Notes under the pieces: model-generated
What the model was told of the DNA's origin: nothing
The model's database searches: none
The model's input: the letters and a program-made list of their open reading frames with translations, nothing else
Part shown: positions 1 to 15,335 of the stretch, in pieces
How positions within the stretch are numbered: the first letter of the stretch is position 1
Layout: the number at the start of each line of letters is the position of its first letter
Made by a program: the position numbers and the translations under genes
Origin: Citrobacter youngae ATCC 29220
GTDB taxonomy: Bacteria > Pseudomonadota > Gammaproteobacteria > Enterobacterales > Enterobacteriaceae
Direction: 5' to 3'
Length of the DNA: 64,000 nt
NCBI RefSeq assembly: GCF_000155975.1
Contig: NZ_GG730300.1
Location: forward strand, 149,558-213,557

Positions 1-8
1 GGGAACAG

Positions 9-710
9 ATGCGATATCCGGTCGATGTTTTTACAGGCAAGGTTCGGGACTATACGGGAAGTCGTCCCAGCGCGATTGCTAAAGTTCAGGTTGATGGTGA
101 GCTGATGCTGACCGAGCTGGGCCTGACGGGCGATGAACAGGCGGAAACGAAAATTCATGGCGGGCCGGATCGCGCGCTGTGCCACTATCCGCGTGAACAC
201 TATCAGCACTGGAGACAAGCGTTTCCGGAGCAAGCGGCGTTATTTGTCGCGCCCGCTTTTGGCGAGAACCTCTCCACTGAAGGGCTAACGGAAGAGAATG
301 TTTATATTGGTGATATTTTCCAATGGGGAGAGGCGTTGATTCAGGTCACGCAGCCGCGTTCGCCGTGCTTTAAGCTGAATTTCCATTTTGGTATTAGCGA
401 TATGGCAAGCCAGATGCAGAATGCGGGCAAGACGGGCTGGTTGTACAGCGTCATCGCCGCAGGCCAGGTCTCGGCGGATGCGCCGTTGATCCTGGCGTCA
501 CGCGTGAGCGACGTCAGCGTGCGGGAGGCGATTGCCATTGCCTGGCATATGCCGTTTGATGACTCGCAGTATCACCGTTTACTGTCGGCTGCCGGGTTAT
601 CGAAAAGCTGGACCAGAACAATGCAGAAACGTCGCCTGAGTGGCAGGATTGAAGATAATGCCAGACGACTATGGGGCGGCAATCCCCCTCAGGAAAGAAA
701 GGAAGTGTAA
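9..710 (+). CDS. yiiM: YiiM, MOSC-domain protein (6-hydroxyaminopurine reductase component)
   Basis: The protein (233 aa) begins MRYPVDVFTGKV and carries a MOSC domain over most of its length. The conserved HGGPDRALCHYP stretch lies near residues 50-62, and a cysteine sits in the PRSPC motif near residue 119, where MOSC proteins bind the molybdenum cofactor. In E. coli YiiM reduces N-hydroxylated bases such as 6-hydroxylaminopurine and so guards against mutagenic base analogues. The C-terminus is about nine residues longer than the 224-aa E. coli protein as I remember it, because the reading frame runs on to overlap the start of the next gene. Only eight bases lie upstream in the window, so its promoter is not visible. 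Recognition rests on overall resemblance and is firm. Confidence 0.95.
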   Translation: MRYPVDVFTGKVRDYTGSRPSAIAKVQVDGELMLTELGLTGDEQAETKIHGGPDRALCHYPREHYQHWRQAFPEQAALFVAPAFGENLSTEGLTEENVYIGDIFQWGEALIQVTQPRSPCFKLNFHFGISDMASQMQNAGKTGWLYSVIAAGQVSADAPLILASRVSDVSVREAIAIAWHMPFDDSQYHRLLSAAGLSKSWTRTMQKRRLSGRIEDNARRLWGGNPPQERKEV

Positions 711-1111
711 TGACTGAATCTGAAAATGCAGTGGCTATCGTTAAAGCGTTTCTGGTTGCTTCTATGATCCCAGACGCGGAACGCGCTGCGACGTTTATGC
801 ACCCGGAGGTGAAGATTACCTTTACCGGGCGGCGTGAGATGGTGGGCGCTGCGGATATTGCTCGCTTTAACGGTGAACGCTATAAGTGGGTAAAAAAGTC
901 GCTGGGCGAGTTTGATGCGGTAGCGCACGCAGACTGTGTGGTCGTTTATTCTAACGGCACGCTGTATGGCGAGTGGCCGGACGGACGCGCGTTTGCGGGC
1001 AATCGTTATATCGATCGTTTTGAAGTGCGTGACGGAAAAATTACCCATATGGATGTGTGGAACGACAGCGCTGAATGGCTCCTCGCCCCGGAAATTTCCC
1101 GCCAGGCGTAA
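710..1111 (+). CDS. SnoaL-like / NTF2-fold small protein
   Basis: The start is the ATG that overlaps the yiiM stop (TAATG), preceded by a strong AGGAAAG/GGAAG ribosome site inside the end of yiiM. This gives 133 aa rather than the longer frame opening at 671. The protein has the pattern of SnoaL-like NTF2-fold domains: an N-terminal helix (residues 5-35, AVAIVKAFLVASMIPDAE), a phenylalanine/glycine-rich strand (KITFTGRREMVG), and a C-terminal sheet ending YIDRFEVRDGKITHMDVWND. Such proteins are small enzymes or ligand binders. No catalytic residues can be assigned, so no reaction is proposed. The one-base overlap means it is translationally coupled to yiiM, which hints at a shared detoxification role (inference). 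E. coli K-12 has no equivalent here that I recall. Confidence 0.8.
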   Translation: MTESENAVAIVKAFLVASMIPDAERAATFMHPEVKITFTGRREMVGAADIARFNGERYKWVKKSLGEFDAVAHADCVVVYSNGTLYGEWPDGRAFAGNRYIDRFEVRDGKITHMDVWNDSAEWLLAPEISRQA

Positions 1112-1197
1112 GGCCAGCAGTTCACTTATGTAAGATAGTAAAAGATCGCCTGCTCAGAAGATGGCTTTTGAGAATGCTTCCGTAAGGATAACACCGT

Positions 1198-1500
1198 TCA
1201 CTTAAGATGCTTTGAGTGAACGGAATAATGGTTTTTTGAGATTCGAAAACTTCTCTTTTTGGGCCGTTTTCTCTTTTCTGGCAGGATAAATTGTCTCACA
1301 TTCTCCCGCATTTTCTTCAGCTTCGTTGGGATCGTCCCTGGTTTGCCCAGCGAATATACCCCATTCGTCATACTCGGCTCGACAAGCGGGTCGAGTTTTT
1401 CCGGCGTCAGGCCACATTGCCTCAGCCACTGATGACTCGCGTCACTGACTGCGTTCTGTTGTAACTCCCTCTCCAGCAGGGCGACCAGTATTTTATCCAA
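1198..1500 (-). pseudogene. Rhs core remnant (end of the island)
   Basis: The frame encodes LLERELQQNAVSDASHQW and then LRQCGLTPEKL, which aligns with the Rhs core segment just before the HLYHCDHRG repeat in the intact Rhs protein of this window. After VEP the reading shifts: the next recognisable core piece, CRAEYDEWG, lies in another frame. The stretch between, including [13 protein letters not shown], is deleted. The remainder is basic nonsense-like sequence and no start codon with a ribosome site is present. It is the most decayed and most distal piece of the Rhs train and should make no functional protein. Its 5' end overlaps the 3' end of the neighbouring immunity gene by a few bases. 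Confidence 0.75.
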
Positions 1501-1741
1501 AATAACGGCAAATTACATTATAAATGGAGTATATCCCATTAGCTAAAAATAAGAATGAAATATAACGTGACCATCCTCCGCCAGAATAAAAAAATAAACA
1601 TGTTGATATCGATATCATACTACATACTATTGCGACAATGAATAGTTTGTAATATTCAGTCTCATTTATGGCTGTCACACTAATTGCCGTTAATGCAATG
1701 ATTGAAGCGATAAGCCCAACGATGAAAATTAAATTTTTCAT
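1493..1741 (-). CDS. Small membrane protein, probable immunity protein of orphan Rhs tip B
   Basis: The predicted protein (82 aa) has three hydrophobic segments: residues 3-24 ([19 protein letters not shown]), about 31-51 ([20 protein letters not shown]) and 57-78. It therefore looks like an inner-membrane protein with little soluble mass. Its ATG overlaps the stop of the Rhs tip upstream as ATGA, the arrangement usual for rhs toxin/immunity pairs. I do not recognise the family. Membrane-embedded immunity proteins generally protect against toxins that act on the inner membrane or from the periplasm, so toxin B may be membrane-active (inference). Sequence is AT-rich compared with the Rhs cores. 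Confidence 0.6.
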
Positions 1742-2244
1742 TTGGACGTTCCACTATTTGTTGTAGTGCTGCTTCCCCTTGACGATGAGGCACCGAATCC
1801 CATTGTAGTAACTGCACCATCTCTTTTCGGGGCAGTGGTTGACTGGCCGGGAGCTTCTTTAAATTGACGTTGGCTCCAGCTTCGACAAATATCATCATAA
1901 CCATAGTAACTACTATCACCAATTTTTCCATCCATCAAATTTTTAAAGGCTTTATCTTGTTCGGATGTTGTTGTTTTATAGGCATCAATCACGCCTCCGT
2001 GATTTACATCATTATAGACTTCACCTGTAATGATGCCACTCAACCCATAACTGTATGAATAATAATCCCCATTAGGATCACCGACATTTACGCTTTGATG
2101 AAGATCCGGTTCACTTGATGCTGCACCCTCCAGCCCAATTGGGTCCTGGGTGATATACCGGCCCAGTCCCGGACTGTAGTACCGGTGGCGGTTGTAGTGC
2201 AGTCCGGATTCGTCGTCATACTGCTGTCCCGGCAGGCGGATTCG
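1738..2244 (-). pseudogene. Orphan Rhs C-terminal tip B (displaced toxin)
   Basis: The reading frame is open from 2244 down to the stop at 1738. The first 40 codons are the end of an Rhs core ([18 protein letters not shown], then [13 protein letters not shown]). They are followed by a variable tip of about 128 residues containing [16 protein letters not shown] and a Ser/Thr/Gly-rich tail. The core part starts abruptly at an AT-rich junction near 2245, with no start codon and no N-terminal Rhs cage, so this is a displaced rhs-CT segment of the kind left when a new tip recombines into an rhs gene. The tip matches no toxin family I know. It ends in an ATGA overlap with its immunity gene. It could be reactivated by recombination through the shared core sequence. 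Confidence 0.75.
2126..2244 (-). repeat. Rhs core-end direct repeat 1
   Basis: First copy of the repeated segment encoding the last part of the Rhs core (RLPGQQYD...ESGL, NRHRYY, DPIGL). Further copies lie near 3141-3413, 4372-4554, 6461-6585 and inside the intact rhs at 7557-7823. All are on the same strand, so they can serve as recombination sites for exchanging toxin tips. Confidence 0.75.
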
Positions 2245-2311
2245 TTTTTTTATCCTCTTTGGAACAAAAAATCTATTATATTAAGACAAAAACAATCAAG
2301 CATACATTCTT

Positions 2312-2602
2312 TCAACTATATTTGGTCGGAAATATACATCCGTGCCCCTCAGCCCATAGTGAAATTCCTGCAGTAAAAAAAAACAATAATGCCCCTCCAT
2401 AAATACACACCAATATAGTAATGGAAAAAATCTTATCCTTAAAGCTAAAAACATGTCGATACATTTCAAAAATACCAGAAAACGTGTTCATATCAATTTT
2501 TTTCCTCCTGCAAAAAATAAAACCATAACTTATTGATGTTATGAGCATAATGAATATCAAGGTAAATAAAATAAATCTTATATATGTTATTTTTTCGCAC
2601 AT
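2312..2602 (-). CDS. Two-span membrane protein, probable immunity protein of orphan Rhs tip C
   Basis: The protein (96 aa) has two clear hydrophobic stretches, residues 8-30 (IRFILFTLIFIMLITSISYG) and about 60-84 (FSITILVCIYGGALLFFFTA), separated by a basic loop (CRRKKIDMN). The gene starts nine bases after the Rhs tip C stop and runs in the same direction, the place of an immunity gene. I recognise no family. A membrane location suggests that the cognate toxin is met in the periplasm or at the inner membrane (inference). The sequence is strongly AT-rich, unlike the GC-rich Rhs core, as is usual for horizontally shuffled toxin/immunity cargo. Confidence 0.6.
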   Translation of the reverse strand: MCEKITYIRFILFTLIFIMLITSISYGFIFCRRKKIDMNTFSGIFEMYRHVFSFKDKIFSITILVCIYGGALLFFFTAGISLWAEGHGCIFPTKYS

Positions 2603-2611
2603 AGAGACTCA

Positions 2612-3436
2612 CTAGTAAACAGGGATAGATACACTTGATGTATATGGGGCTTTTAACTCAGGGCCTATGCCAGTACCACTTCCAATATAAACCTCTGGCC
2701 ATTTTGTGGTTTGTGTAACCTCAATGGATACAAAACCTAACCCAATGGCAAAACCTGCATTGGTTTTTAAATCCTTAGCATCCGAACTTCTAAATTTAAG
2801 CCCACATGTTAGGGAGCCTCGTAAACCAATTGCAGCTAAAGGGGCACCAATTAATACATTCCCACCATTTTTTTCATTGTACGAGTAACTTCCAGAAAGA
2901 CCGCTACCCAATGCGGCTATCCCTGAGACTCGGCACTCTCTCGATATAGATGATGGTGGTGGTAATGGTGCCAGAGCTTTAACCATTTGATCTGTAGACG
3001 CTCCATTTTGAGCCATCCATAAACCAAGAGATGCGCGTTCGGTAGTTGCGCTCCCCATATTAATACTATTCCATGGTTGTAATCCTAAGGGATCTATCTT
3101 CCTAATAGGATTTCGTGGGTATGTATACGGGTTTAAACCGCCTTCCAGCCCTATAGGATCCAGGGTGAGATACCGATCCTGCCCCGGGCTGTCGTACCGG
3201 TGGCGGTTGTAATACAACCCCGACTCCTCATCACACTGCTGTCCCGGCAGCCGTATCAGCCGTTGCAGATTGTGCGGATTATCTTCCCGCAGCACGTTAC
3301 CCCATTCGTCATATTCCGCGCGCCAGCTGATGGCGCCGTCCTGGTTTATCAGCGCCAGCGGCAGGCCCCGGTGGTCGCAGTGGTACAGGTGGAATTTACG
3401 CCGCGGCGTGTACACCGGTGCCAGCTGGTTCAGCAT
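2612..3436 (-). CDS. Orphan Rhs C-terminal protein C (core end plus toxin tip)
   Basis: This 274-aa frame starts at an ATG ([15 protein letters not shown]) with AGGA five bases upstream, at an internal methionine of the usual Rhs core. It keeps [24 protein letters not shown], the GLYYNRHRY segment and two DPxGL motifs near residues 93-97 and 114-118. After the second DPLGL comes a variable tip of about 155 residues rich in glycine and serine ([15 protein letters not shown] and later [10 protein letters not shown]). I do not recognise this tip. Several normally invariant core residues have drifted (QQC for [12 protein letters not shown] for [13 protein letters not shown] for TQDP), so this copy is not under core-function selection. 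With an apparent ribosome site it could be translated on its own, but without PAAR or cage it has no delivery route. Confidence 0.65.
3141..3413 (-). repeat. Rhs core-end direct repeat 2
   Basis: Second and longest displaced copy of the Rhs core end, from the HLYHCDHRG motif to DPIGLEGG. It is collinear with the intact rhs at 7557-7823 and has scattered substitutions. Confidence 0.75.
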
Positions 3437-3576
3437 TCATTCCTGTATCAGGCCACACTAAAGTTCTTCACTTCACCCGGGCATATTTACAATTATATGA
3501 AAAGGTCTTTGGTGATTTCATCGAAAATTTACCTTTTATTTATTGGAAACATCAATATATTTACCTTATGTAAGCA

Positions 3577-3912
3577 TCATTCATACACAACCTTTATATT
3601 TTTAAATGTTAGATTCAGATATCCATCGGTAAAATAAAGAAAGAATTTATATTTTGATTTGTTGCTGACTTTTTTTACATAACCATTGCTAATATTTCCT
3701 GCGTTACGGTTATCATTAATTTCTGTTACATCCATAGTCATGGTTAAATTTTCAACACTTATAAACTCCACATTTAATTCATTACGTTTATTATCATTGT
3801 AAACACTGACGGATATCATCAGATTGATGCTTCCATCTTTACAACTCAGTCGTGAGTCTAAAAACACCCCATCATGCCACTCAATCTCATTAAGAATATT
3901 ATATTCATTCAT
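3577..3912 (-). CDS. Probable immunity protein of orphan Rhs tip D
   Basis: The protein (111 aa) is soluble-looking and beta-rich, with no signal peptide or membrane span. It opens MNEYNILNEIEWHDGVFL. The WHDG motif near residue 13 resembles FHDS at the same place in the broken immunity gene at 4639-5082, so the two may be distant relatives. It starts 17 bases after the stop of Rhs tip D and is transcribed with it. The open frame is intact even though its toxin upstream carries an amber codon, consistent with selection for protection rather than attack (inference). The exact family is not recognised. Confidence 0.6.
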   Translation of the reverse strand: MNEYNILNEIEWHDGVFLDSRLSCKDGSINLMISVSVYNDNKRNELNVEFISVENLTMTMDVTEINDNRNAGNISNGYVKKVSNKSKYKFFLYFTDGYLNLTFKNIKVVYE

Positions 3913-3929
3913 TGCATAATACCTTTTTA

Positions 3930-4649
3930 TTACGGAGTTACCGCATTAACGGGAATTGTTGGCCAAAGAGGCGGGGCAAGCGAAGGTATCATTCGAATCA
4001 CTCGATATATAATATACCCCATACCAATAGTAGCTCCAGTTGCAACAACCACCTGTGCAGTGGATGTCTCTGAGTCTTTACATGCTAGTTTACTTTGTTC
4101 TGGCTCGAAACCATACCTTCTTGCACATTTTTTAATAGAATTTGGTGCGGATGAGTAATCATCTCCGTGAGATTGACCACCAAATTCACCCATTACTCCG
4201 CTTCCATTTTTGCATTCCCAGTGCAAATGTCTCCCATCGCCAACCGCATCTCCATCAATACGAATGCGACAACCTTTGCCACAGTCTTTCCATTTTCCAG
4301 ATATATGAGCTAAGCCTAGCGGATCAATCCAATTAACTGGATTATTTTTAACATAGCTGTATGAGTTCAACCCGCCTTTCAGCCCAATCGGGTCCTAGGT
4401 GATATACCTTCCCGTCCCCGGATTGTAGTACCGGTGGCGGTTGTAGTGCAGCCCCGACTCCTCATCATACTGCTGGCCAGGCAGGCGTATCAGCTGCTGC
4501 AGATTATGTGGATTATCTTCCCGCAGCACGTTGCCCCATTCATCATGCTCCGCGTGCCGTAGCTCCTTTTCCAGCCCACACAGCAATACCATCAGCTTCG
4601 GCACATTTCGACTTTGACCGGCTGTGTGAAGACGATTGTTATCTTTCAT
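3930..4649 (-). pseudogene. Orphan Rhs tip D with an in-frame amber codon
   Basis: The 5' part (from about 4600) is Rhs core with an internal deletion that joins [12 protein letters not shown] to [10 protein letters not shown]. It then continues normally ([18 protein letters not shown]). At 4395-4397 the usual glutamine of [10 protein letters not shown] has become TAG. Eight codons later the same frame goes on through [19 protein letters not shown] into a variable tip of about 125 residues. The tip has a histidine/cysteine-rich region (CRIRID, GRHLHWECK, SHGDDY, CARRYGF) and a hydrophobic tail ending PPLWPTIPVNAVTP. I recall similar RIRID/HLHWECK tips in other enteric Rhs proteins but not an established activity. 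Without amber suppression no toxin is made from the core start, though an internal start near 4370 would still give the tip. Confidence 0.75.
4372..4554 (-). repeat. Rhs core-end direct repeat 3
   Basis: Third displaced copy of the Rhs core end (YDEWG-like to DPIGLKGG), with the amber mutation inside it at 4395-4397. It shares an extension into the tip (NSYSYVKNN) with the copy at 6461-6585. Confidence 0.75.
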
Positions 4650-5082
4650 GCCGTAGTAAAAACTGACGATTGACAGTTCGTTGACTTCCTGTAATTTCTA
4701 AAGAAAAGGATGATGCGCCAAAATTAATACAACTATCATGACTATTTGTATAAATACCCCACAAAAAATAATTATCTGCAATAGGGGAGTGTATTTTGGT
4801 TTTCGTTATATCGGTAATATAAAGTCCTGAAGCATGTCCAGAGAAAAAACTATTATTTGTCTCCCCCCAATCAATAGATATCTTTAAGTCGGTTACTTCA
4901 TGGAATTTCAATAACGCGCTGGAAATAACAAAATTTATTTCATTGCTATCTGTTTTGATTCATTCATATATATAGTCAATATCCAATGCTATGTCTGAAG
5001 AAAACTCTCCAGGTTCAGAATAAAAAACAATGCCATGAATTAAGCTGTCATGAAAATCATCTTCGTTTAAATTATGTTTCAT
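4639..5082 (-). pseudogene. Immunity gene of Rhs tip E, broken by an opal codon
   Basis: Reading starts at the ATG at 5082 (MKHNLNEDDFHDSLIHGIVF) after a GGGA ribosome site. It runs about 40 codons to a TGA at 4960-4962, then continues in the same frame for over 100 codons (IKTDSNEINF, later LKISIDWGETNNSFF and ITGSQRTV) to a TAA at 4639. A single TGG-to-TGA change would explain the break. The restored protein would be about 146 aa, soluble, with an FHDS motif near residue 10 that recalls WHDG in the neighbouring immunity gene. It starts 20 bases after the Rhs tip E stop. A sequencing error at one base cannot be excluded. Confidence 0.7.
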
Positions 5083-5102
5083 AAGTATCCCAGTGATTTT
5101 TA

Positions 5103-5745
5103 TTAAGGTAAACCACAGCCACCAAAAACGTGTGTCTGAGGGTGGCACTTATATGTTTTGGGGTTCTGATTATTAATATCATAATGCCAGTGCACAGGAC
5201 TGCTAGTTAAAACCATGCAACCATGGGCTCCATCGGCTAAACCTCTACCTTCGTGTTTTTCAGTATGTATTTCTATATTATATTTTTCTCCTGCAGGAGG
5301 AGCATATGGTGGACACTCATCTTCCTCACTATTACTAAAAGTTTTATTTAACCATTTTCGGCTTTTGCCAGTTCCGTCATCTCCGTTTCGATTCTGACAA
5401 ACGGCGTGAAGCTGCCCGGTGTGTAAATCGTCTACGTGGTCGTCAGCTTGTCGCCGTCCCATACCACCTCCGGCACGGGGTTAAGCCAGATCCTAGTGAG
5501 GCTTTCCCGTTCAGTCTTGCTTTTTCATATCCGTTTACCGACGCGGCGGTCCTGCGGGTCATACAAATAACGGCTTTCCGTCAGCGACTACCTCTGCTGC
5601 GCACGGACGTAATGCGCCAGCCTGTGCCGGTTATCATAATGGTGGCGCCGTCACGGATGCGCCGTTCGTCTTTTTCTGTCAGCCTGCCGCGCTCATTGTA
5701 CTGCCAGCACTCAGCAGCTTCACTGTTCACCATGCACGGTTTTTA
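5103..5745 (-). pseudogene. Decayed Rhs core fragment and toxin tip E
   Basis: From about 5745 to 5400 the sequence is recognisably Rhs core at the DNA level: pieces matching the intact gene around 8100-8400 and 9080-9130, such as WDGDKLTTT and TIYTPGSFTPFVRIET. It carries several stops and frame changes. From about 5370 to 5103 one frame is open and encodes a tip with ECPPYAPPAGEKYNIEIH, HEGRGLADGAHGCM and a C-terminal HVFGGCGLP. The histidine/cysteine content suggests a nuclease- or hydrolase-like tip, but I recognise no family. The core and the tip are no longer joined in one frame. The broken gene at 4639-5082 sits in the immunity position. Confidence 0.7.
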
Positions 5746-6048
5746 TTAGAAAGATGATTCCAGACCACAATCATAATTTTTTGCCTGCCGTATGTAATTT
5801 CGAACATCATTCGCCATGAGTTGGTCTGGGTCTAAATATGTTAATTTAATCAATAGTGCTAACTCGTTTCTATCTGGAACGCGTTTTAACCACCAATGAA
5901 AAGCGCCATTGCGATCGTGTTCTGAGCCTTGTTCATCCCCATCTTGATAGTTTTTTACTTGGATGAAATAAAGTTCATCAGGGTACATGTTGTAGATTTT
6001 CCACTCAATTGGGAAATTCATTTTTTTTAGAAACTCATCTTTATTCAT
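5746..6048 (-). CDS. Probable immunity protein of orphan Rhs tip F
   Basis: The protein (100 aa) is acidic and soluble, with FHWWLKRVPDRNELALLI followed by LTYLDPDQLMANDVRNYI, a helix-rich layout. The ATG at 6048 overlaps the stop of the frame-restored Rhs tip F as ATGA, with an AAGGAG ribosome site just upstream. This coupling identifies it as the immunity partner. I have a vague memory of similar short FHWWLKR proteins beside rhs genes but cannot name a family. The gene is intact while its toxin is frameshifted. Confidence 0.65.
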   Translation of the reverse strand: MNKDEFLKKMNFPIEWKIYNMYPDELYFIQVKNYQDGDEQGSEHDRNGAFHWWLKRVPDRNELALLIKLTYLDPDQLMANDVRNYIRQAKNYDCGLESSF

Positions 6049-6590
6049 TTCTTACTCCTTATATAGCTGGCGGGGTCAAATCTCCCCCCCATGTCTTCAT
6101 AATTTTGACATGATACTAATTCTCCACGTTGACACATTTCACCTGCTACGTCTCGGACCGACATATAATCACCAAGCACTCCCAGTAATTTACCATATTT
6201 AAATATATGCTTTTGTCTCTCAGATAATATTTTTTAGCTTCATCGGTTAGTTTCTTACAAAAAGATTTCTGTTCTGCTGAGCACCTACTTTTACGAACTC
6301 TTGATATGCGAAACCATTCACCCTTTACAGGATCGATGCCATGTAACTCAACAGTTAATTTCATAAATTATTTCCAATTATATTCTGTAGTGGGTGAAAT
6401 ATTTTCTTTACAACCTCGACAATTAACTGATTATTTTTAACATAACTGTATGAGTTCAACCCACCTTCCAACCCTATCGGATCCTGGGTGAGATACCGAC
6501 CCTGCCCCGGGCTGTAGTACCGGTGCCGGTTATAATACAGCCCCGTTTCTTCATCATACTACTGTCCCGGCACTCTGATTAACCTAGGTT
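6045..6590 (-). pseudogene. Orphan Rhs tip F, frameshifted
   Basis: The 5' part is an Rhs core end ([34 protein letters not shown]) with a stop in place of a glutamine (PGQ-stop-YDEE). The toxin part follows in a different frame. From 6364 an open frame reads [18 protein letters not shown] and TDEAKKYYLRDK, but the A6 run at 6230-6235 appears to have lost one base. With seven A's the frame would continue KKILSERQKHIFKYGKLL and MCQRGELVSCQNYEDMGG, ending RSKK with TGA exactly overlapping the immunity ATG. There is thus one clear -1 frameshift plus a damaged core/tip junction. The restored tip would have about 105 residues downstream of 6364; its activity is unknown. Confidence 0.7.
6461..6585 (-). 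repeat. Rhs core-end direct repeat 4
   Basis: Fourth displaced copy of the Rhs core end, including [14 protein letters not shown] and the SYSYVKNN extension shared with repeat 3. It is followed upstream (6590-6707) by AT-rich sequence in which I see no gene. Confidence 0.7.
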
Positions 6591-6707
6591 GTGTAAGTTT
6601 GTTTCACTGACCATTTTATTTACTCACCAAGAACTCCTTTGCGTTGCACTGAGAATATGTATACCTCTTCGGTATATAATTTATTGTTATTTTTCATTGT
6701 TCTCACT

Positions 6708-7088
6708 TCATTCAGTGTCACCATCATTTTTCACCAATAAATATATCAATTCACATAAAGCAGGGTCATTTTTCGATAATTGTACTGAGCTTGTATTTTC
6801 TTTTAATTGATTAATTGTTATAATGCCAGAATCATTACAAACAATAGATCCAGATATTGATGTTAATTTTAGTTTTGGGGCATAGCTTTTCATGTCATAA
6901 GACCACCCAGATAAATTTTCTTTTTCCAAAAATAGTTCCTTCACCCTATTGCCTAAAATATTTCCTTGTTTAATCTCTTTTCCAGAATCATATAAATAAT
7001 AATGATATGAATTAGATAGGAAATCTATCGGCACACTAGTTTTATACCAAGGTATGAAACTTAAAATAAGGAATGCAAATTTATTCAT
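6708..7088 (-). CDS. Probable immunity protein of the intact Rhs effector
   Basis: The protein (126 aa) starts with a hydrophobic segment ([15 protein letters not shown], residues 1-15) that looks like a signal anchor or an uncleaved signal peptide. It is followed by a polar domain with two cysteines (IVCNDSG near 83 and ALCELIYLL near 113). Its ATG overlaps the rhs stop as ATGA, so toxin and immunity are translationally coupled. An exported immunity protein implies that the effector is neutralised in the periplasm, which fits a cell-wall or membrane target (inference). The family is not recognised. Low GC content contrasts sharply with the rhs core next to it. Confidence 0.7.
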
Positions 7089-10000
7089 TTAAAGAATCCT
7101 TTTACTGTGTCTATTATGTCATTTATTTTATCTTTCACTCTCTTTTTCATAATCATGCGAACCATTTCATTATATTCTCCATTAGAATAGGTTCTACAGC
7201 TATTAAAAAGAACATTGTATGAACCTGTCTTACCTACCTGCTGTTCCAAATGTTTTTTTATCAAAGCATCTTCTTCTGGTGTGGTTTTAAATGACTCAGC
7301 TACTTTTATAGCACTATCATTGTCTACATATACCATCCCATCTCCAGCTTTTCCTACATCAGGGGTTCCAGACACATTTCCCCATATATCAGGATCAGCA
7401 GTGTAGACCCCGAAGCTTATACCATAAGTTCCTGTGCCCTCATCTACTTCAACTTTTCTATGCCAACCACCTACAGCATCGGTATTTACCAACCTTACAT
7501 CAAGTCCTGACGGATCAATATATTCAACTGGGTTTAGGGGATATTTATAAAGGTTCCATCCCCCTTTCAGCCCTATCGGATCCTGGGTGATATACCGGCC
7601 CAGTCCCGGATTGTAGTACCGGTGGCGGTTGTAGTGCAGTCCGGATTCGTCGTCATACTGTTGGCCCGGCAGGCGTATCAGCTGTTGCAGATTGTGCGGA
7701 TTATCTTCCCGCAGTACGTTACCCCATTCGTCATACTCCGCGCGCCAGCTGATGGCGCCGTCCTGGCTTATCAGCGCCAGCGGCAGGCCCCGGTGGTCGC
7801 AGTGGTACAGATGCAGCGTCCTCTCCGGGACCGGCAACGGCTCCATCTGCGCCGCCATCTGTTCCGGCGTCAGGCCGCACCCGGCCAGCCACTGGCGGTT
7901 TGCATCGCTGATAACCCCGGCGCGCAGCTCACCTTCCAGGCGGTCAAGCATGTTCACCAGCGCCGGCGGGAACACCACGCCAGCGCCATCCCCGCTGCCT
8001 TCCTGCCGGAGTTTCTCCGCCAGCGTCCGGTGACGGCGCAGGGCGTCCAGCGCCTCTGTGGCGGTCTCCACCCGGATGAGCGGCGTGAAACTGCCGGGTT
8101 CATAAATTGTCTGGACGCGGGTCTGCGCCGTCTGCGTGGTGGTCAGCCGGTCGCCGTCCCAGCCGTACCAGGTGGTGTACGGCCTGTGCGACAGTGCCGT
8201 CCGCGTGTCGCTCCAGTGCACGGGTTCGCGTTTCCATACCCGCTTACCGACGCGGCGGCCCTGCGGGTCGTAAATATACCGCCCCTCCGCCTGCGTCTCA
8301 CCGTGCTGCGTGCGTACACAGTGCACCAGCCGGTGCTGGTTATCGTAGCTGTAGCGGTGCGTGCGTTCATCGTACATGCGGATGGCCCCGTCGGGGATAC
8401 GGTCCGTCTTCTCCGTCAGCCTGCCGTAACGGTCATAGCGGTACAGGTACTGTGCATCCTCCGTGATGCGGTTATCCGCCCATATCTTTCTGCTGCTGTC
8501 CGGATAAAATTCCGGGTCCGGCAGACGGTTGCCCGCCGGGTCGGTGGCGTAAGGGAGGCGGATATCCAGACCGTCCGCAATCATGCGCACGCCGGTGAGC
8601 CTGCCGGTCTGGCTGTAGCCGTATTCCCGGGTCTGGTGCGGGGTGCTGATGCGGGTCAGATGCCCGGCCCCGTCATACCCGTAGTCGCGGTTCAGAAGCG
8701 GACTGTTCAGGTGCCGGCTCAGCAGCTGTCCGGCCGCGCTGTAGCCGGTGGCGAGCGTATATTCGCCGAAACAGCGTTGTGTCTCCCGGTGCAGGCGGTC
8801 GCGGGTGAAGTCGATGAGTGGGGTGTCACCGAGCTTCACCCCGGCCAGCCAGCCGCTGCCGTACGTCAGCCAGGCCACCGGGGGAAGGTGGTCGTGCGTG
8901 GTTTTATTCGCCAGTCCGTTCTGATAATCGTGCTGCGTGAGGTGCTCCCACAGCAGGGTTTGCGTCTGCGGGGCATGGACGGTCTGTTTCTCGCTGAGCA
9001 GCCGGCCTTTCTCATCATAGCCGTAGTGCACCGCCACCCGGTGCCCTTCGCTGAGGTGGCTGATGCCCGTCAGCCAGCCGTGGTCGTTGTACTGCCACTG
9101 CTCCGCCGGTTCGCCGTTCACCGTGCGGTGTGTCAGGCGGTCAGCGTCATCGTAATGCCACAGCGTGACGAGGTCTTCGTCCTCACTGCGGACAAGCTGT
9201 CCACCGGTGTTGTAGCCATAGCGCTGCGTGCGGCCGTCAAAGCCGGTCTGCTGCGTCAGCCTGTCCAGTGCATCGTAAGTGAATTCAGTATGGCTGCCGT
9301 TCTCATTGGTCAGCTGTGTTACGCGTCCGGCGGCATCGTATGTTATCTGCCGGGTCAGGCCGCCTGCGGTGATACTGACCGGTCTGCCGCCCGCATCGTG
9401 CTGCGTTTCCGTGCGGCTGCCGTCCGGGGCAATCACTGCCGTCAGGTCGCCGGCCTCACTGTATTCATAGTACGTCTCGCGGCCTGCCGCGTCGTGCTGG
9501 CTGACAGGCCGGCCCCGGGTATCGTAAGCGCGATACCGGCTGAGACCTTCCTCCTGATGCATGGCCGTGAGCTGCCCGAAGCGGTCATACTCATAGCGGG
9601 TTTCATACCCGGAGCAGTCGGAGACGCTCAGCAGCTGACCGTAATGGCTCCATGTCATCTGCTTTTTGCTGCCGGTGGCATCCTCCCTGGCGCAGGGATA
9701 TTCACTGTGCGGGTCAGCATACACATAGCGGGTGGTGCTTCCCTGACGGGAAGTCTGTGCCGTCAGGCGGCCCTGTTCATCGTATGCCAGCTTCTCCCGT
9801 AAACCGTCCGGGTGGGTGACACTGGTCAGCTGGCGCCCGCCATTGTAATAAAACGCCGTTTTCCTGCCGTCGGGGGAGATAATTTCTGTGACGTTACCGG
9901 ACGCAATACTGTACCGGTATTCGGTTTTCCGGCCCGCCGCATCGGTCCGGGCGGTGAGCCAGCCCGCGGGGTTGTATTCACTGCAGGTCACGCTGCCGTC

Positions 10001-11182
10001 GGCGTATTCCTTTTTCACCACCCGTTTCAGGCCGCCTTCACCGGCCGTGTGCAGCACTTCCCGGCGGTGCAGGCTGTCGGTGATGGCAACATGGTCCCGC
10101 TGGTACTCATAGCGGTAACTCAGTCCTGCCGGGTTTAGCTGCTCCACCACGCGCCCGGCCGCATCATAGCGGTAGCTGGTCTGCGGGCGTCCGGCGTACT
10201 GGTGGGCCACCATCCTGCCCGGGGTCTCCGCGTCATAGTCAAAACGGCGCACCTGCACCCCGCCCCGGTCATACACCGCGGCCAGCTCGCCGCGCGGGGA
10301 ATAGGCATAGCGCGCCAGCGGGGACGCCGGCAGGTTGTCCGGGTACAGCGGGTCGTGCACCAGCCAGACGGCGCCGAGACGGATCCCGTCATCCCGGCCG
10401 TAGCGGGTGACCGGCAGCACATCCGTCTGCTTCAGCACCAGCCGGAAGCGGCGGCCAGCGCCGTCCGTCACGCCGGTGATATGGCCGCTGAACGGCCCGG
10501 CGGCCTCGCGGTGATATGAGAGCCTGCGCCCGAAACTGTCCACCAGCCCGGTCAGCACCCGGTACGGCGGCAGCGGGGCGGGGAGTGCCTCATCCACGTC
10601 CGGCACCCGTTCAGACCACCCCAGTAACCACCACGGCCCCTGCGGACTGTTTGCCGCCAGGTACTGATGCGGGCTCAGGCGGATGTCTTCCGGCAGCGCC
10701 TGCCAGAGCCGGTGCAGGGGATGGCTCTCGTGCAGCTTCGCCACGCCGCCACGGGCGAGCCAGAAGCGTTCGCTGCGGCTGAAGGCCACTTCTCCGGGGA
10801 GCAGGTGCTCAAAGTGGATGCTGCGCCCGCCGTTGTCGTTGAGGATAAGTTCCTCATCCTGAACCTGCAGATAAATATCGCAAGGCGCTTTCCAGCCGGG
10901 GCCGAAGATACCGACCGGAGCCGGGGTGCGGGTCCGGTAACTGCTGTAGGCGCGGGTGAGGACAAAGGGCAGCGGGCCGGGCAGGGAAAAATCGGTCTCA
11001 CCGGGCAGGACTTTGGCGCCGAGGAGCGGGTTGACCGGAGGGCCGTAGATGACGTCGCCGGGGCAGACGGAGCAGGCGACGCCGGTGGGGGCGCCAATCA
11101 TCACGCCCATGGAACCCTGCACAATCGGGCCGCCGAATTTCGTCATGTCGCCCATGCGGGCAGCCGGTTTTCCACCGCTCAT
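7085..11182 (-). CDS. Intact PAAR-like Rhs effector with C-terminal toxin tip
   Basis: The ATG at 11182 ([12 protein letters not shown]) has AAGG eight bases upstream; the TTG at 11188 is too close to it. This gives 1365 aa. Residues 1-60 form a PAAR-like cap ([24 protein letters not shown]) that would sit on a type VI secretion spike. Residues about 60-1200 are the Rhs cage with many YD repeats (for example [25 protein letters not shown]). The core closes with [31 protein letters not shown] and IDPSGL (about 1223-1227), after which Rhs proteins self-cleave. The tip (about 1228-1365) has GGWHRKVEV (His near 1241) and [16 protein letters not shown] (Cys near 1329). The His-before-Cys order recalls circularly permuted papain-like/NlpC-P60 folds, so a peptidoglycan or lipid hydrolase is possible (inference). 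No T6SS genes are in the window. Confidence 0.9.
7557..7823 (-). repeat. Rhs core-end direct repeat 5 (within the intact rhs)
   Basis: The parental copy of the repeated core end, still in frame with the full Rhs core and the current toxin tip. The displaced copies at 2126, 3141, 4372 and 6461 share this segment. Confidence 0.75.
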
Positions 11183-11380
11183 CGCCAAATCCTTTTGTAA
11201 AACATCAGGATTTGCAGATTACGCCTGCTTCAGATGAGGGGATTGTGAGATAAGTGCAACAGAGAGAAGATTCGGAAATAATTTAGATTGAGCACATGAA
11301 AAATTGCCACTATTTCCATTAGCGAAGGGAATATCAAAGCCTTAACAGCTATCGGCCTACGTGAGGTAGGCCGACATTGA

Positions 11381-12754
11381 TTAGGTACGTTTGTACAACG
11401 GGAGCCAAAGCACCAGCCGCAAGCCACCCAGCGGGCTGTCTTCGGCCTTCACCCAGCCACGATGTTGCTGAATAGCCGTTTCAACAATCGCCAGACCCAG
11501 ACCCGTTCCGCCTGACTCGCGATCGCGCGCCTCATCGGTACGATAGAATGGACGGAAAATCTGTTCCCGATCCTCAGGGCTGACGCCCGGACCATCGTCG
11601 TCCACGGTGATGGTGATCCCGTCTTTATCCACCGCGAAGCCCACTTCAATCTGGGTGTGTGAATAGCGCAGGGCGTTGCGCACAATGTTTTCCAGCGCGC
11701 TTTCCAGCGCATTTGGGTTGCCGTACAGCGGCCACGGACCCGGCGGGAAATTCACCGTGAGCGATTTACCCATCTGCTCGGCTTCAAAGGCGGCGTTATC
11801 CAGTACTTCGCCCCATAGCTGATTGGCTTTCACCGTTTCGCTGACCAGCGCGTTTTTCTGCTGATTACGGGACATCACCAGCAGGTCGTTGATCATGCTG
11901 TCCAGCCGATGCGCTTCTGTTTCAATACGTTCCAGCTCTTTACTCTCACCGCTGCGCCGACGCAGCAGGGCGGTACCCAGCTGCAGACGCGTCAGCGGCG
12001 TTCTCAACTCATGCGAGATGTCCGACAGCAGGCGCTGCTGCGTGGTCATCATCCGCTCCAGCGCCGTTACCATCTGGTTAAAGCTGGCGCCAGCCGCCAG
12101 AAACTCCTGCGGACCGGCTTCCAGCTCCGGATGCTGACGCAGGTTGCCCTGGGCCACTTCATCCGCTGCATTTTTCAGCTTACGCGCCGGTTTCGCCAGG
12201 CTCCAGGCAAGCCAGAGCAATAGCGGAGAACTGACCAACATGGTGACGATCAGCAACAACAGCGGTCGGTCGAACAGCAGGTTGATAAAGTCAGATTGTG
12301 AGCTGCTGGCAGGTCGAATGAGATACAACTGGTAGTTATCTTCACCGTCTCTGACGGAGAAAGGCCCGACCATCTCAACGCGACCGTATTTTTTCTTTTG
12401 CGGATGGTCGGCGTTATCGGCCTGACCAATAAAGTTACGAATGATCTGCATTTCGTTGCGTTCTGCGCCGATCACGCGTCCTTCCGTCGTAACAAGTAAT
12501 AACCGCTGTCCTGGCGGCGCCCACTTGTCTATCGCCCGAAACAAGCGACGCCACCACATCAAATCGTTGGGTGGATCGTTCGCCAGTTCAGCTTCAACGT
12601 GCTGCTCAATCATCAACCCCTGGCGCTGCTCGCTGTCCAGTAGCTCGGTCATCTGGCGTGAGTCGAGCTTGGGTAACATCAGTACCAACATCAACACCAG
12701 TGCCAGCGTCAACCAGAAGATGGCAAAGATGCGTGCGGTTAAGCTCCCTATCAT
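11381..12754 (-). CDS. cpxA: CpxA, envelope-stress sensor histidine kinase
   Basis: The protein (457 aa, the E. coli length) has a first membrane span at about 7-28 and a periplasmic sensor loop from 29 to about 162. A second span follows at 163-185, then a HAMP linker, a dimerisation domain with the phosphorylated histidine H248 in SDISHELRTPL, and a C-terminal ATPase with N box (IVRNALRYSH) and G boxes (DDDGPGV, GGTGLGLAIV). It senses misfolded envelope proteins and phosphorylates or dephosphorylates CpxR. Its ATG overlaps the cpxR stop (ATGA), so both are made from one mRNA. No unusual residues were noticed. Confidence 0.98.
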   Translation of the reverse strand: MIGSLTARIFAIFWLTLALVLMLVLMLPKLDSRQMTELLDSEQRQGLMIEQHVEAELANDPPNDLMWWRRLFRAIDKWAPPGQRLLLVTTEGRVIGAERNEMQIIRNFIGQADNADHPQKKKYGRVEMVGPFSVRDGEDNYQLYLIRPASSSQSDFINLLFDRPLLLLIVTMLVSSPLLLWLAWSLAKPARKLKNAADEVAQGNLRQHPELEAGPQEFLAAGASFNQMVTALERMMTTQQRLLSDISHELRTPLTRLQLGTALLRRRSGESKELERIETEAHRLDSMINDLLVMSRNQQKNALVSETVKANQLWGEVLDNAAFEAEQMGKSLTVNFPPGPWPLYGNPNALESALENIVRNALRYSHTQIEVGFAVDKDGITITVDDDGPGVSPEDREQIFRPFYRTDEARDRESGGTGLGLAIVETAIQQHRGWVKAEDSPLGGLRLVLWLPLYKRT

Positions 12755-13449
12755 GAAGCGGAGACCATCAGGTAGCCGCGACCACGCAGGGTTTTAAACC
12801 ACGGGTGTCCGTCTTTACGCTCTGGCAGCTTACGACGCAGGTTCGAGATATGCATGTCGATCGCGCGATCGAAAGGCGTCAGGCGCTTGCCCAGCACTTC
12901 CTGGCTCAGATGTTCACGCGACACCACCTGACCGAGATGCTGTGCCAGCAAATAGAGCAGGGTGAATTCGGTGCCGGTTAACTCCAGGGTTTGCCCGTCA
13001 AAGCTGGCTTCCTGGCGACCCGGGTTAAGGCTTAATGCGTCCACTTCCAGGGTCGGCGAGCCGTTGTCGCTGTTCTGCTGCTGTTCGCTCCAGTGCGAAC
13101 GACGCAGAATAGCGCGGATGCGCGCGACCAGTTCACGGTCGTTAAATGGTTTAGGTAAATAGTCGTCCGCGCCCAGCTCAAGGCCGAGTACGCGATCCAA
13201 TTCGCTGCCGCGAGCGGTCAGCATGATTACGGGTGTCTGGTGTGTCTGGCGAAGCGCTTTCAGTGTATCGATACCGTTTTTCTTCGGCATCATGACGTCG
13301 AGCAAAAGTAAATCGATGCTGTCATCCAGAAGCTCAAGCGCTTGTTCCCCATCATAGGCAACCAGCACATCGAAACCTTCCATTTCGAGCAATTCCTTCA
13401 ACAGGGAAGTCAGCTCTCGGTCATCATCAACTAACAGGATTTTATTCAT
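12751..13449 (-). CDS. cpxR: CpxR, envelope-stress response regulator
   Basis: OmpR/PhoB-type regulator of 232 aa. The receiver domain (1-115) has the acidic pocket VDDD at 7-10, the phosphoacceptor D51 in LLLLDVMMPKKNG and the conserved lysine in the LPKPFNDREL motif. A winged-helix DNA-binding domain follows (about 135-232; REHLSQEVLGKRLTPFDRAI and RRGYLMV-like end). Phosphorylated by CpxA, it activates cpxP, degP, dsbA and its own operon. A GGAGG ribosome site lies ten bases before the ATG. The divergent cpxP promoter region holds a clear CpxR box. Confidence 0.98.
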   Translation of the reverse strand: MNKILLVDDDRELTSLLKELLEMEGFDVLVAYDGEQALELLDDSIDLLLLDVMMPKKNGIDTLKALRQTHQTPVIMLTARGSELDRVLGLELGADDYLPKPFNDRELVARIRAILRRSHWSEQQQNSDNGSPTLEVDALSLNPGRQEASFDGQTLELTGTEFTLLYLLAQHLGQVVSREHLSQEVLGKRLTPFDRAIDMHISNLRRKLPERKDGHPWFKTLRGRGYLMVSAS

Positions 13450-13504
13450 TGTTTACGTACCTCCGAGGCAGAAATTACGTCATCAGGCGTCGCTAATCTA
13501 TGAC

Positions 13505-13519
13505 TTTACGTTGTTTTAC
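13505..13519 (-). promoter_or_regulatory. CpxR box between cpxR and cpxP
   Basis: Read on the minus strand this is GTAAA-N5-GTAAA, an exact match to the CpxR consensus. It is placed to control both the divergent cpxRA and cpxP transcripts. Extra GTAAA half-sites lie near 13550 (plus strand) and close to the cpxR start. Confidence 0.85.
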
Positions 13520-13599
13520 ACCCCCTGACGCATGTTTGCAGCCCGAATCGTAAACTGTCTCTCGTTGAATCGCGACAGAAAAGATTTTGGGAGCAAGTG

Positions 13600-14100
13600 A
13601 TGGGCAAAGTTACCGCTGCCGTCATGGCCTCAACGCTGGCATTTAGTTCTTTAAGCCATGCAGCTGAAGTCGTCACAGGCGATCACTGGCACCTGGGTGA
13701 AGGCTCCTCGCAACGCAGCGTACAGAGCCACATGTTTGACGGTATCAGTTTAACCGAACATCAACGTCAACAGATGCGAGATTTAATGCAGCAGGCAAGA
13801 CACGAACAGCCTCCTGTTAATGTTAGCGAAATGGAGACAATGCATCGCCTTGTCACCGCAGAGAAATTTGATGAAAGCGCTGTGCGCGCTCAGGCAGAAA
13901 GAATGGCGCAAGAACAGGTTGCCCGCCAGGTTGAAATAGCCCGGATTCGCAATCAGATGTATCGCCTGTTAACGCCCGAGCAGCAAGCGGTTTTAAACGA
14001 GAAACATGAGCAACGAATGGAGCAACTGCGCGACGTAGCGCAATGGAAAAAAAGCTCATCGTTGAATTTATTGAGTAGTAGCAACTCACGTTCCCAGTAG
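13600..14100 (+). CDS. cpxP: CpxP, periplasmic inhibitor and adaptor of the Cpx system
   Basis: Starting at the ATG at 13600 gives 166 aa, the E. coli length. A GTG immediately upstream would add one residue. A signal peptide ends in LSHA-AEVV (cleavage near 21). The mature protein has the two LTxxQ-type motifs of the CpxP/Spy family, [13 protein letters not shown] near 50 and [10 protein letters not shown] near 127. The protein is a cradle-shaped helical dimer that binds misfolded pilins, hands them to DegP and keeps CpxA quiet. It is one of the most strongly Cpx-induced genes, in keeping with the CpxR box about 80 bases upstream. Its 3'UTR is the CpxQ sRNA. Confidence 0.97.
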
Positions 14101-14108
14101 TACCCCTG

Positions 14109-14166
14109 TTTTCCTTGCCATAGACACCATCCCTGTCTTCCCCCACATGATGTGGGGGTTTTTTTT
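14109..14166 (+). ncRNA. cpxQ: CpxQ small RNA from the cpxP 3'UTR
   Basis: The region just after the cpxP stop is the known position of CpxQ, a roughly 58-60 nt Hfq-bound RNA cut from the cpxP mRNA by RNase E. The sequence begins TTTTCCTTGCCATAGACACC and ends in a strong rho-independent terminator, as I remember the Salmonella/E. coli CpxQ. It represses several envelope-protein mRNAs and nhaB. The exact 5' end is taken from that memory, not measured here. Confidence 0.9.
14140..14166 (+). terminator. cpxP/CpxQ rho-independent terminator
   Basis: A perfect 8-bp stem (CCCCCACA / TGTGGGGG) with a TGA loop is followed by eight T's. Confidence 0.95.
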
Positions 14167-14247
14167 GCCCAAAATTTGTCACTCGGTAATTGCCTGACTG
14201 TTTTACTTCATCCGTTATACTAGCGGCATATCCTGGCAGGAGTGTTT

Positions 14248-15150
14248 ATGAATCAAACCTATGGGCGGCTGGTTAGCCGGGCGGCAATCGCGGCGACCGT
14301 GATGGCATCGCTGTTACTTTTGATCAAAATTTTTGCGTGGTGGTACACCGGATCCGTCAGTATTCTGGCGGCGCTGGTGGATTCTCTGGTCGACATTGCG
14401 GCGTCGCTCACCAACCTGTTGGTGGTGCGCTATTCATTGCAACCCGCCGATGATGAACACACGTTCGGACACGGAAAAGCGGAATCGCTGGCGGCGTTGG
14501 CGCAAAGCATGTTTATTTCCGGCTCAGCGCTGTTTTTATTCCTGACCGGGATTCAGCATCTCATCCAACCCACGCCGATGAAAGATCCCGGTGTCGGGGT
14601 GGGCGTCACCATCATTGCGTTAGTTTGTACAATCATACTGGTTTCGTTTCAGCGCTGGGTGGTGAAGCGTACGCAAAGCCAGGCCGTTCGGGCGGATATG
14701 CTTCATTATCAGTCTGATGTTATGATGAACGGAGCGATTCTCATTGCGCTTGGCCTGTCATGGTACGGCTGGCATCGCGCAGATGCCTTGTTTGCGCTCG
14801 GAATTGGCATCTATATTTTATATAGCGCATTACGCATGGGGTATGAGGCGGTACAGTCATTGCTGGATCGCGCTTTACCTGATGAAGAACGTCAGGAAAT
14901 TATTGATATAGTGACGTCATGGCCGGGGGTCAGCGGCGCTCACGATCTTCGCACGCGGCAGTCAGGGCCGACCCGCTTTATTCAGATTCATTTGGAAATG
15001 GAAGATAATCTGCCGCTCGTTCAGGCGCATGTCGTGGCTGAGCAGGTAGAGCAGGCGATTTTGCGACGTTTCCCGGGATCGGATGTCATCATTCATCAGG
15101 ATCCCTGTTCTGTCGTACCCAAGGAAGGCAAGATGTTTGAGCTTTCATAA
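14248..15150 (+). CDS. fieF: FieF (YiiP), cation-efflux CDF transporter
   Basis: Starting at the ATG at 14248, five bases after CAGGAG, the protein has 300 aa as in E. coli. It is a cation diffusion facilitator with six membrane spans in the first about 210 residues. The transport-site residues are visible as ALVDSLVDI (Asp45, Asp49) and HYQSDV (His153, Asp157). A cytoplasmic ferredoxin-like domain follows from about residue 212 with metal-binding histidines ([20 protein letters not shown]). It exports Zn2+ and Fe2+ from the cytoplasm in exchange for protons. It stands alone between CpxQ and pfkA. Confidence 0.97.
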
Positions 15151-15335
15151 TTCGTTGTAAAAAAAGTGAACCAGGCCAGCATTTTGTGTATAAATTACCA
15201 CCATTTGGCCTGACCTGAATCAATTCAGCAGGAAGTGATTGTTATACTATCTGCATATTCGTTGGATCGTTTCGATATGCGGAATCGACTTCCGGCAGCA
15301 GATTTCATTTTGCATTCCAAAGTTCAGAGGTAGTC

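What the first reader, a model, noticed from the sequence alone, without database searches (positions are those of the whole stretch)
1198..11182. A train of five displaced Rhs toxin tips with immunity genes behind one intact Rhs effector
Downstream of the intact PAAR-Rhs gene the same strand carries five Rhs core-end segments, each fused to a different tip and each followed by a distinct small gene in immunity position, then a last core remnant. Orphan rhs-CT/immunity modules are known in enterics, but this is a long and well-ordered series in which all but one of the immunity genes look intact and most toxins are damaged. It suggests a growing archive: old tips are displaced, toxins decay, and immunity is kept against siblings with older weapons.
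Basis: partly seen in the sequence, partly recalled or inferred. Interest (0 to 1): 0.75.

Follow-up and report, generated by a model that had tools for sequence, protein, structure and literature searches.

The report
Displaced Rhs toxin-tip train
A gut-type bacterium carries one intact toxin-delivery gene followed by a row of older, swapped-out toxin ends and their likely antidote genes, a known arrangement; related strains do not show that the antidotes are specially preserved.

Summary
The train is real. On the minus strand, between cpxA and snoaL/yiiM, an intact Rhs gene with its tip and immunity gene (11188-6708) is followed by five core fragments with unrelated tips and small genes, then a core remnant. 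The first displaced unit is two modules fused by deletion, so six displaced pairs are represented. Four of the six displaced tips, and the front tip, have homologues at the end of an Rhs core in another species; M4 has no clear relative in the samples. In E. coli the M3 tip ends an intact Rhs gene in one strain and is displaced at the same locus in others. This is Rhs C-terminal displacement (Jackson 2009), one of the two longest among 39 loci sampled.

The claimed asymmetry (immunity kept, toxins decayed) is not supported. Here 3 of 6 tips and 4 of 6 immunity genes are open. In E. coli 395 of 397 genomes match the M3 tip at 99% or more, while its immunity gene is one base short in 34 of 59 full-length rows listed. 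Immunity was less conserved than tip in 6 of 6 comparable pairs; module 1b leans the other way. A new member of a known kind.

The parts
7085..11188 (-). Intact rhs gene: core residues 1-1229 plus front tip 0 at 7085-7501
   Evidence: NF041261 2107.9 bits; tip 94% to Atlantibacter hermannii L059 and 79% to Serratia silvae L060
6708..7088 (-). Immunity gene 0 (126 aa), overlapping the tip stop; homologues follow tip 0 in L059 and L060
6433..6585 (-). M1 core-end fragment (core residues 1169-1219), one in-frame stop
   Evidence: tblastn
6301..6412 (-). M1a: last residues of toxin A and first residues (about 20-25) of its immunity gene, cut off by deletion
   Evidence: 83% nt over 112 bases to E. 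coli SCU-301
6062..6275 (-). M1b: remnant (last ~70 codons) of toxin B, truncated and frameshifted
   Evidence: 599-base alignment at 94% to G193, where toxin B ends an Rhs core
5746..6048 (-). Immunity gene 1b (100 aa), open, 97% to G193
5384..5735 (-). M2 core fragment (core residues 908-1042), stops and frameshift; core end missing
5103..5351 (-). M2 tip remnant, N-terminal part lost; 63% to the tip of an open 1382-aa Rhs frame in G025
4639..5082 (-). Immunity gene 2, interrupted by an in-frame stop; the part after it is 51% to the immunity gene in G025
4311..4560 (-). M3 core-end fragment with one in-frame stop
3930..4310 (-). M3 tip, Tox-WTIP family, open
   Evidence: PF15654 E 8e-17; 82% aa to E. 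coli
3577..3912 (-). Immunity gene 3 (111 aa), open
3080..3460 (-). M4 core-end fragment (core residues 1104-1229), one in-frame stop near its start
2612..3079 (-). M4 tip, open; no clear relative found
2312..2602 (-). Putative immunity gene 4 (96 aa), open; no relative found
2126..2245 (-). M5 core-end fragment
1738..2125 (-). M5 tip, open; 85% to the tip behind an Rhs core in G391
1493..1741 (-). Immunity gene 5 (82 aa), open; 65-68% in G391
1340..1512 (-). Last core remnant (core residues 1071-1156, frameshifted)

Best explanation
An rhs locus grown by C-terminal displacement. A tip plus its immunity gene, carried on a piece of rhs core, recombines into the core and becomes the front tip; the old tip and immunity gene are pushed downstream with a core fragment. 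Repeated at least six times, here or in donors, this gives the train. Displaced tips have no full core, so they should not be deliverable; they remain a pool for later recombination. Displaced immunity genes may protect for a while against neighbours that still deploy the matching tip, but nothing here shows selection to keep them, and both halves of a module can decay. Shown: anatomy, homology, homologous tips at core ends elsewhere, one displaced/attached polymorphism in E. coli. Inferred: order of events, T6SS delivery, toxicity, protection.
For: Intact core followed by same-strand core fragments with unrelated tips. Homologues at a core end elsewhere: tip 0 in S. silvae (open 1359-aa gene) and on a partial core in A. 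hermannii, perhaps itself displaced; toxin B in G193 (core in two overlapping frames); tip 2 in G025 (open 1382-aa frame); tip 3 in E. coli MLI114 (open 4155-bp gene); tip 5 in G391 (core in two frames) and on a contig-end core piece in G260. Toxin A's relative in SCU-301 directly follows an Rhs core. In E. coli the same yddH-side locus carries WTIP at the end of a full-size rhs gene or displaced behind another tip. Immunity 1b and the start of the next core fragment are shared with G193 in one 599-base alignment. M3, M4 and M5 core fragments match the window's own core best of 13 compared. The genome holds three T6SS VasE matches. The island is absent at this site in 15 of 16 other genus members; the sixteenth, G003, gave no cpxA match.
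Against: No clear relative was found for M4. M1, M2 and the last remnant match the G193 core better than the window's own, so part of the block may have been imported ready-made. No other strain of this species was available, so no displacement step was seen at this locus. No vgrG was seen among the ORFs of window 1-16000, and PAAR is below its cut-off.
Confidence: 0.87

Rival explanations
1. Selected immunity archive: displaced toxins decay freely, and the immunity genes are kept by selection against kin that still deploy old tips.
For: Four of six displaced immunity genes are open against three of six tips. M1b: immunity 9 synonymous and 3 non-synonymous changes and no indel against G193, toxin remnant 7 and 4 with two frame-breaking indels. 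Two E. coli records have the tip replaced or interrupted by an insertion sequence while the immunity gene is open. In G242 a shortened WTIP tip precedes an open immunity gene. In S. alvi immunity without toxin was seen but never the reverse (PMC5727410, passages); orphaned immunity genes are common in Gilliamella (PMC8125069, passages); an orphan Rhs immunity protein protects Serratia Db10 (PMC10539506, passages).
Against: In E. coli the displaced M3 immunity gene is annotated as frameshifted in 6 of 12 opened records that still have the displaced tip and is one base short in 34 of 59 full-length rows listed, while the tip is at 99% or more in 395 of 397 genomes. Immunity genes next to an attached tip are open in 7 of 7 opened records. 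Immunity less conserved than tip in 6 of 6 comparable pairs. A Shine-Dalgarno-like match was found before only 3 of 7 immunity genes (0, 1b, 3).
Confidence: 0.12
2. Orphan modules act inside the cell as toxin-antitoxin pairs from internal promoters, as described for Salmonella Typhimurium rhs.
For: PMC7043789 (abstract). Tips 3, 4 and 5 are open with open immunity genes; 25 promoter-like matches in 1100-11400 against 15.2 (sd 4.0) in shuffles; the M4 tip has an in-frame ATG with AGGA upstream.
Against: The promoter-like excess is on both strands and may reflect AT-rich tips in a GC-rich region; tips 3 and 5 have only TTG starts (their ribosome sites were not scored); three of six modules have a broken toxin.
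Confidence: 0.07
3. A pre-assembled block: the train (or its M1b-M2 part) was imported whole with the rhs gene, so its order says nothing about this lineage's history. Compatible with displacement having happened elsewhere.
For: The 15 congeners read at this site lack it; window 6275-5678, which spans the toxin B end, immunity 1b and the start of the next core fragment, is 94% to G193 of another genus; M1, M2 and the remnant match the G193 core best.
Against: M3-M5 core fragments match the local core best, and beyond 5678 the alignment with G193 ends.
Confidence: 0.35

Closest known systems
rhs loci with C-terminal displacement (Jackson et al. 2009, PMC2935791; passages)
   Same: Intact core gene, then long strings of dissociated core fragments of variable length with unrelated tips; the paper also describes E. 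coli strains in which one shared tip is displaced by two others independently.
   Different: Here the five fragments are 51-84% identical in protein to the local core in their best stretches, while a passage reports identical cores within a locus; one unit is a fusion of two modules.
Orphan cdiA-CT/cdiI and rhs-CT/rhsI modules (Poole et al. 2011, PMC3150448; passages)
   Same: Orphan toxin/immunity pairs behind a full gene; most orphan toxins lack start signals; orphan modules are fused to full genes in other bacteria.
   Different: The longest array named there (11 pairs, E. coli EC869) is in a cdi locus; expression and activity were measured there, not here.
[quoted passage not shown] 2017, PMC5361080; passages)
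   Same: Successive displacement leaves older immunity genes downstream.
   Different: There old effectors are replaced and the immunity genes often retained; here open tips are nearly as many as open immunity genes.
Snodgrassella alvi and other bee-gut Rhs loci (PMC5727410, passages; PMC8125069, passages)
   Same: Full Rhs gene at the 5' end, truncated Rhs genes with immunity genes behind, a tip-less gene at the 3' end; some orphaned immunity genes there also have nonsense mutations.
   Different: There many displaced toxins are transcribed and immunity genes matter for fitness; not tested here. There immunity outlived toxin in a few strains and never the reverse, unlike the E. coli M3 module here.

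Membership tests
rhs locus with C-terminal displacement | Intact core gene with attached tip at the 5' end | tested here: met
   NF041261 2107.9 bits, open 1367-aa frame
rhs locus with C-terminal displacement | Downstream same-strand core fragments of variable length with unrelated tips | tested here: met
   Five fragments and a remnant; tips differ, except a weak likeness of tips 0 and 5
[quoted passage not shown]
   M3, M4, M5 best to the local core; M1, M2 and the remnant best to G193 (13 cores); no clade tree was built
rhs locus with C-terminal displacement | Displaced tips are attached tips in other strains or species | tested here: met
   B, 2, 3 and 5 at a core end elsewhere; A adjacent to a core; M4 not found
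Rhs polymorphic toxin with immunity pair | Tip toxic to bacteria, next gene specifically protective | not testable with these tools
   Only position, conserved pairing and one Pfam toxin domain over its cut-off (PF15654)
T6SS-delivered PAAR-Rhs effector | PAAR domain at the N-terminus | tested here: not met
   14.4 bits against a 27-bit cut-off, 20 of 70 positions
T6SS-delivered PAAR-Rhs effector | T6SS in the genome or adjacent vgrG | tested here: inconclusive
   Three VasE matches in the genome; no vgrG seen among the ORFs of window 1-16000
Selected immunity gene array | Immunity genes outlast their toxins across strains | tested here: not met
   E. coli M3 module: with two opposite records; this species itself could not be tested

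The most novel reading that the evidence does not exclude
The island sits directly behind the hairpin that follows cpxA. The one congener with the same snoaL neighbour has a run of T after this hairpin; the window has the hairpin without it. Read-through from cpxRA could then transcribe the rhs gene and the whole train, tying a set of immunity genes to the envelope-stress response, which incoming toxins might trigger.
Probability: 0.05. Interest if true: 0.5.

Novelty: new member of a known kind. Interest (0 to 1): 0.22.

Why it matters
It is a clean, fairly long example of how enteric bacteria change toxin tips, with one junction that preserves the scars of two modules. The E. coli comparison gives a simple test of the common idea that displaced immunity genes are kept as an archive: in one widely sampled module the displaced antidote is often lost while the displaced tip stays nearly unchanged as DNA.

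Tried and rejected
Structure of the front tip from a three-sequence alignment: mean pLDDT 37.9, useless, so no fold search was run. PDB sequence searches of tips 0, 3 and 4: one hit at E 0.54 for tip 0, none for the others. Weak Pfam matches (PPPDE peptidase E 0.11 to the S. silvae tip; Ntox33 E 0.0069, below its cut-off, to the SCU-301 toxin A relative) are leads only. Tip 4: only 28-33% hits in G086 and G198; their regions gave no tip 4 hit at 1e-4 and were not followed further. Modules 0, 2, 4 and 5 have no DNA match in the E. coli collection. Absence in the family samples is weak evidence: they include many small-genome species, and tip 5 was missed in 217 genomes, its relatives appearing only when immunity 5 was sought in 382. 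The genus was not named. Selection on this species' own displaced genes could not be tested (one genome per species). The pair comparisons cannot separate changes before and after displacement, and dS was saturated for tip 2, immunity 2 and immunity 3 against E. coli, so no ratio is given there. The 34 one-base-short rows are nearly identical and probably descend from one deletion, so they are not 34 events. The 21 E. coli records opened at the M3 module were picked by hand to cover both lengths and both positions, not at random; open or broken is by the record's annotation, checked by translation in eight of them.
Full report
WHAT IS THERE. The window lies in a 5.15-Mb genome; 17 genomes of its genus, itself included, are in the set searched. 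On the minus strand, behind cpxA (12754-11381), lies an rhs gene (11188-7085, 1367 aa; NF041261 RHS_core 2107.9 bits over a 2000 cut-off) with front tip 0 (7501-7085) and immunity gene 0 (7088-6708). Five more core fragments follow on the same strand, each with an unrelated AT-rich tip or tip remnant and a small gene, then a core remnant (1512-1340), then snoaL and yiiM on the other strand.

ANATOMY OF THE SIX DISPLACED PAIRS. M1 is two modules. Its core end (residues 1169-1219, one stop) leads into the last residues of toxin A and the first residues of its immunity gene, matching E. coli SCU-301 (83% over 112 bases). This breaks off into the last ~70 codons of toxin B, frameshifted, and an open immunity gene 1b. 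Window 6275-5678 is 94% identical to genome G193 of another genus, where toxin B ends an Rhs core that lies in two overlapping frames. M2 has internal core residues 908-1042 with stops, a tip missing its N-terminal part, and an immunity gene interrupted by a stop. M3 (Tox-WTIP, PF15654, E 8e-17), M4 and M5 have open tips and open immunity genes, though stops lie in the M3 and M4 core fragments. Count: tips open 3 of 6, immunity genes open 4 of 6.

WERE THE DISPLACED TIPS ONCE FRONT TIPS? Tip 0: S. silvae, open 1359-aa Rhs behind a vgrG-like gene (by eye), 79%; A. hermannii 94%, on a partial core near a contig end, perhaps itself displaced. Toxin B: G193. Tip 2: G025, open 1382-aa frame, 63%. 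Tip 5: G391, 85%, behind a core in two frames and a vgrG-like gene (by eye), and G260, 71%, on a contig-end core piece. Tip 3: E. coli MLI114, open 4155-bp gene. Toxin A: directly behind an Rhs core in SCU-301. M4: none in 198 (tip) and 217 (immunity) genomes beyond 28-33% hits.

THE ASYMMETRY TEST. In E. coli the WTIP tip has a match in 397 of 5426 genomes, 393 of them over at least 80% of its length; best-place identity is 99% or more in 395. Its immunity gene has a match in 399 (398 over at least 80%): 324 at 99% or more, 74 at 95-99%, 1 at 90-95%. Of the 60 immunity rows listed, 59 span the whole gene, and 34 of these are one base short. I opened 21 records by hand choice. WTIP contiguous with a full-size rhs gene: 7, immunity open in 7, but the rhs gene itself annotated as broken in 6. 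WTIP displaced behind another tip or its immunity gene: 12, immunity open in 6 and annotated as frameshifted in 6. Tip replaced or interrupted by an insertion sequence: 2, immunity open in both. So displaced immunity genes do decay, and in this module more visibly than the tip DNA, although the displaced tip lies behind a stop and is probably silent. The frameshift is probably one event inherited by many strains.

Protein comparisons go the same way. Immunity was less conserved than its tip in 6 of 6 pairs with a comparable tip: tip 0 against two species (94 v 84, 79 v 59%), tip 2 (62 v 50%), tip 3 against E. coli (82-83 v 45-46%) and tip 5 against two genomes (85 v 65, 71 v 56%); the shortened WTIP tip of G242 agrees (72 v 45%). 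dN/dS was 0.13 for tip 0 and 0.20-0.22 for immunity 0. M1b goes the other way: immunity 1b is 97% identical to G193 (9 synonymous, 3 non-synonymous changes, no indel), while the 70-codon toxin remnant has 7 and 4 plus two frame-breaking indels. Both ratios are low (0.07 and 0.15), so most divergence came while both were under constraint.

HOW UNUSUAL IS THE LENGTH? TIGR03696 core ends in 60 relatives: 24 genomes have one, 105 matches in all. Grouping same-strand matches less than 4 kb apart gave 66 clusters; 39 hold an open frame of 1300 aa or more and were counted, 27 without one were left out. Of the 39, 23 had no further core end, 6 had one, 6 two, 2 three and 2 four. This locus and one in G025 are the two longest; in G025 two of the matches overlap, so that train may be one shorter. 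The method misses M2 here. The same genome has two more trains. [quoted passage not shown] coli EC869 (PMC3150448, passages).

SITE. Of 16 other genus members, 15 gave a cpxA match and were read; the island is absent at this site in all 15, and G003 gave no cpxA match. In 10 of them cpxA is followed within about 100 bases by yiiM (9) or by snoaL and yiiM (L038); five have about 3.3 kb of other DNA. The island begins just behind a hairpin after cpxA. L038 has six T after that hairpin; the window and the other 14 show no such run behind theirs in the bases printed. As most congeners lack it too, the Cpx read-through idea is only a guess.

PRIOR ART. C-terminal displacement with 'long arrays of dissociated tips' (PMC2935791, passages); orphan modules with expressed immunity (PMC3150448, passages); immunity arrays in V. 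cholerae (PMC5361080, passages); bee-gut trains, with some orphaned immunity genes acquiring nonsense mutations but also immunity found without toxin and never the reverse (PMC5727410, passages; PMC8125069, passages); a protecting orphan Rhs immunity protein in Serratia (PMC10539506, passages); recombination that redeploys an orphan tip in Salmonella (PMC3967940, abstract); orphan rhs as toxin-antitoxin pairs (PMC7043789, abstract). Both the pattern and the archive idea are in print.

VERDICT. A real, ordinary-in-kind, rather long displacement train. The displacement reading holds; the claim of selectively kept immunity is not supported by the comparisons that could be made, and the decisive within-species test could not be run.

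Noticed in passing
11351-11375: Hairpin after cpxA without the T run that congener L038 has; the rhs island starts just behind it.
   Followed up: partly
7085-7501 and 1738-2109: Front tip 0 and the last displaced tip 5 look distantly related (hhalign probability 82, E 1e-5, 28% identity, shared C-R-x-[YW]-S stretch).
   Followed up: partly
L041:3054-9870 and L043:2098-8878: Two other rhs loci of the same genome also carry further core ends with tips and small genes.
   Followed up: partly
L040:4064-7078: A shortened rhs core (1004 aa) behind a vgrG-like gene (by eye) in the same genome.
   Followed up: no
L025-L029, about 1415-4460 (oriented from cpxA): Five congeners carry about 3.3 kb of other DNA at the same site; in the two read, L025 and L029, three genes, transporter-like, epimerase-like and regulator-like by eye.
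   Followed up: no
L050, L073, L074, L093, L100, L101: In E. coli with WTIP contiguous with a full-size rhs gene, that gene is annotated as broken in 6 of 7 opened records while the immunity gene stays open.
   Followed up: partly
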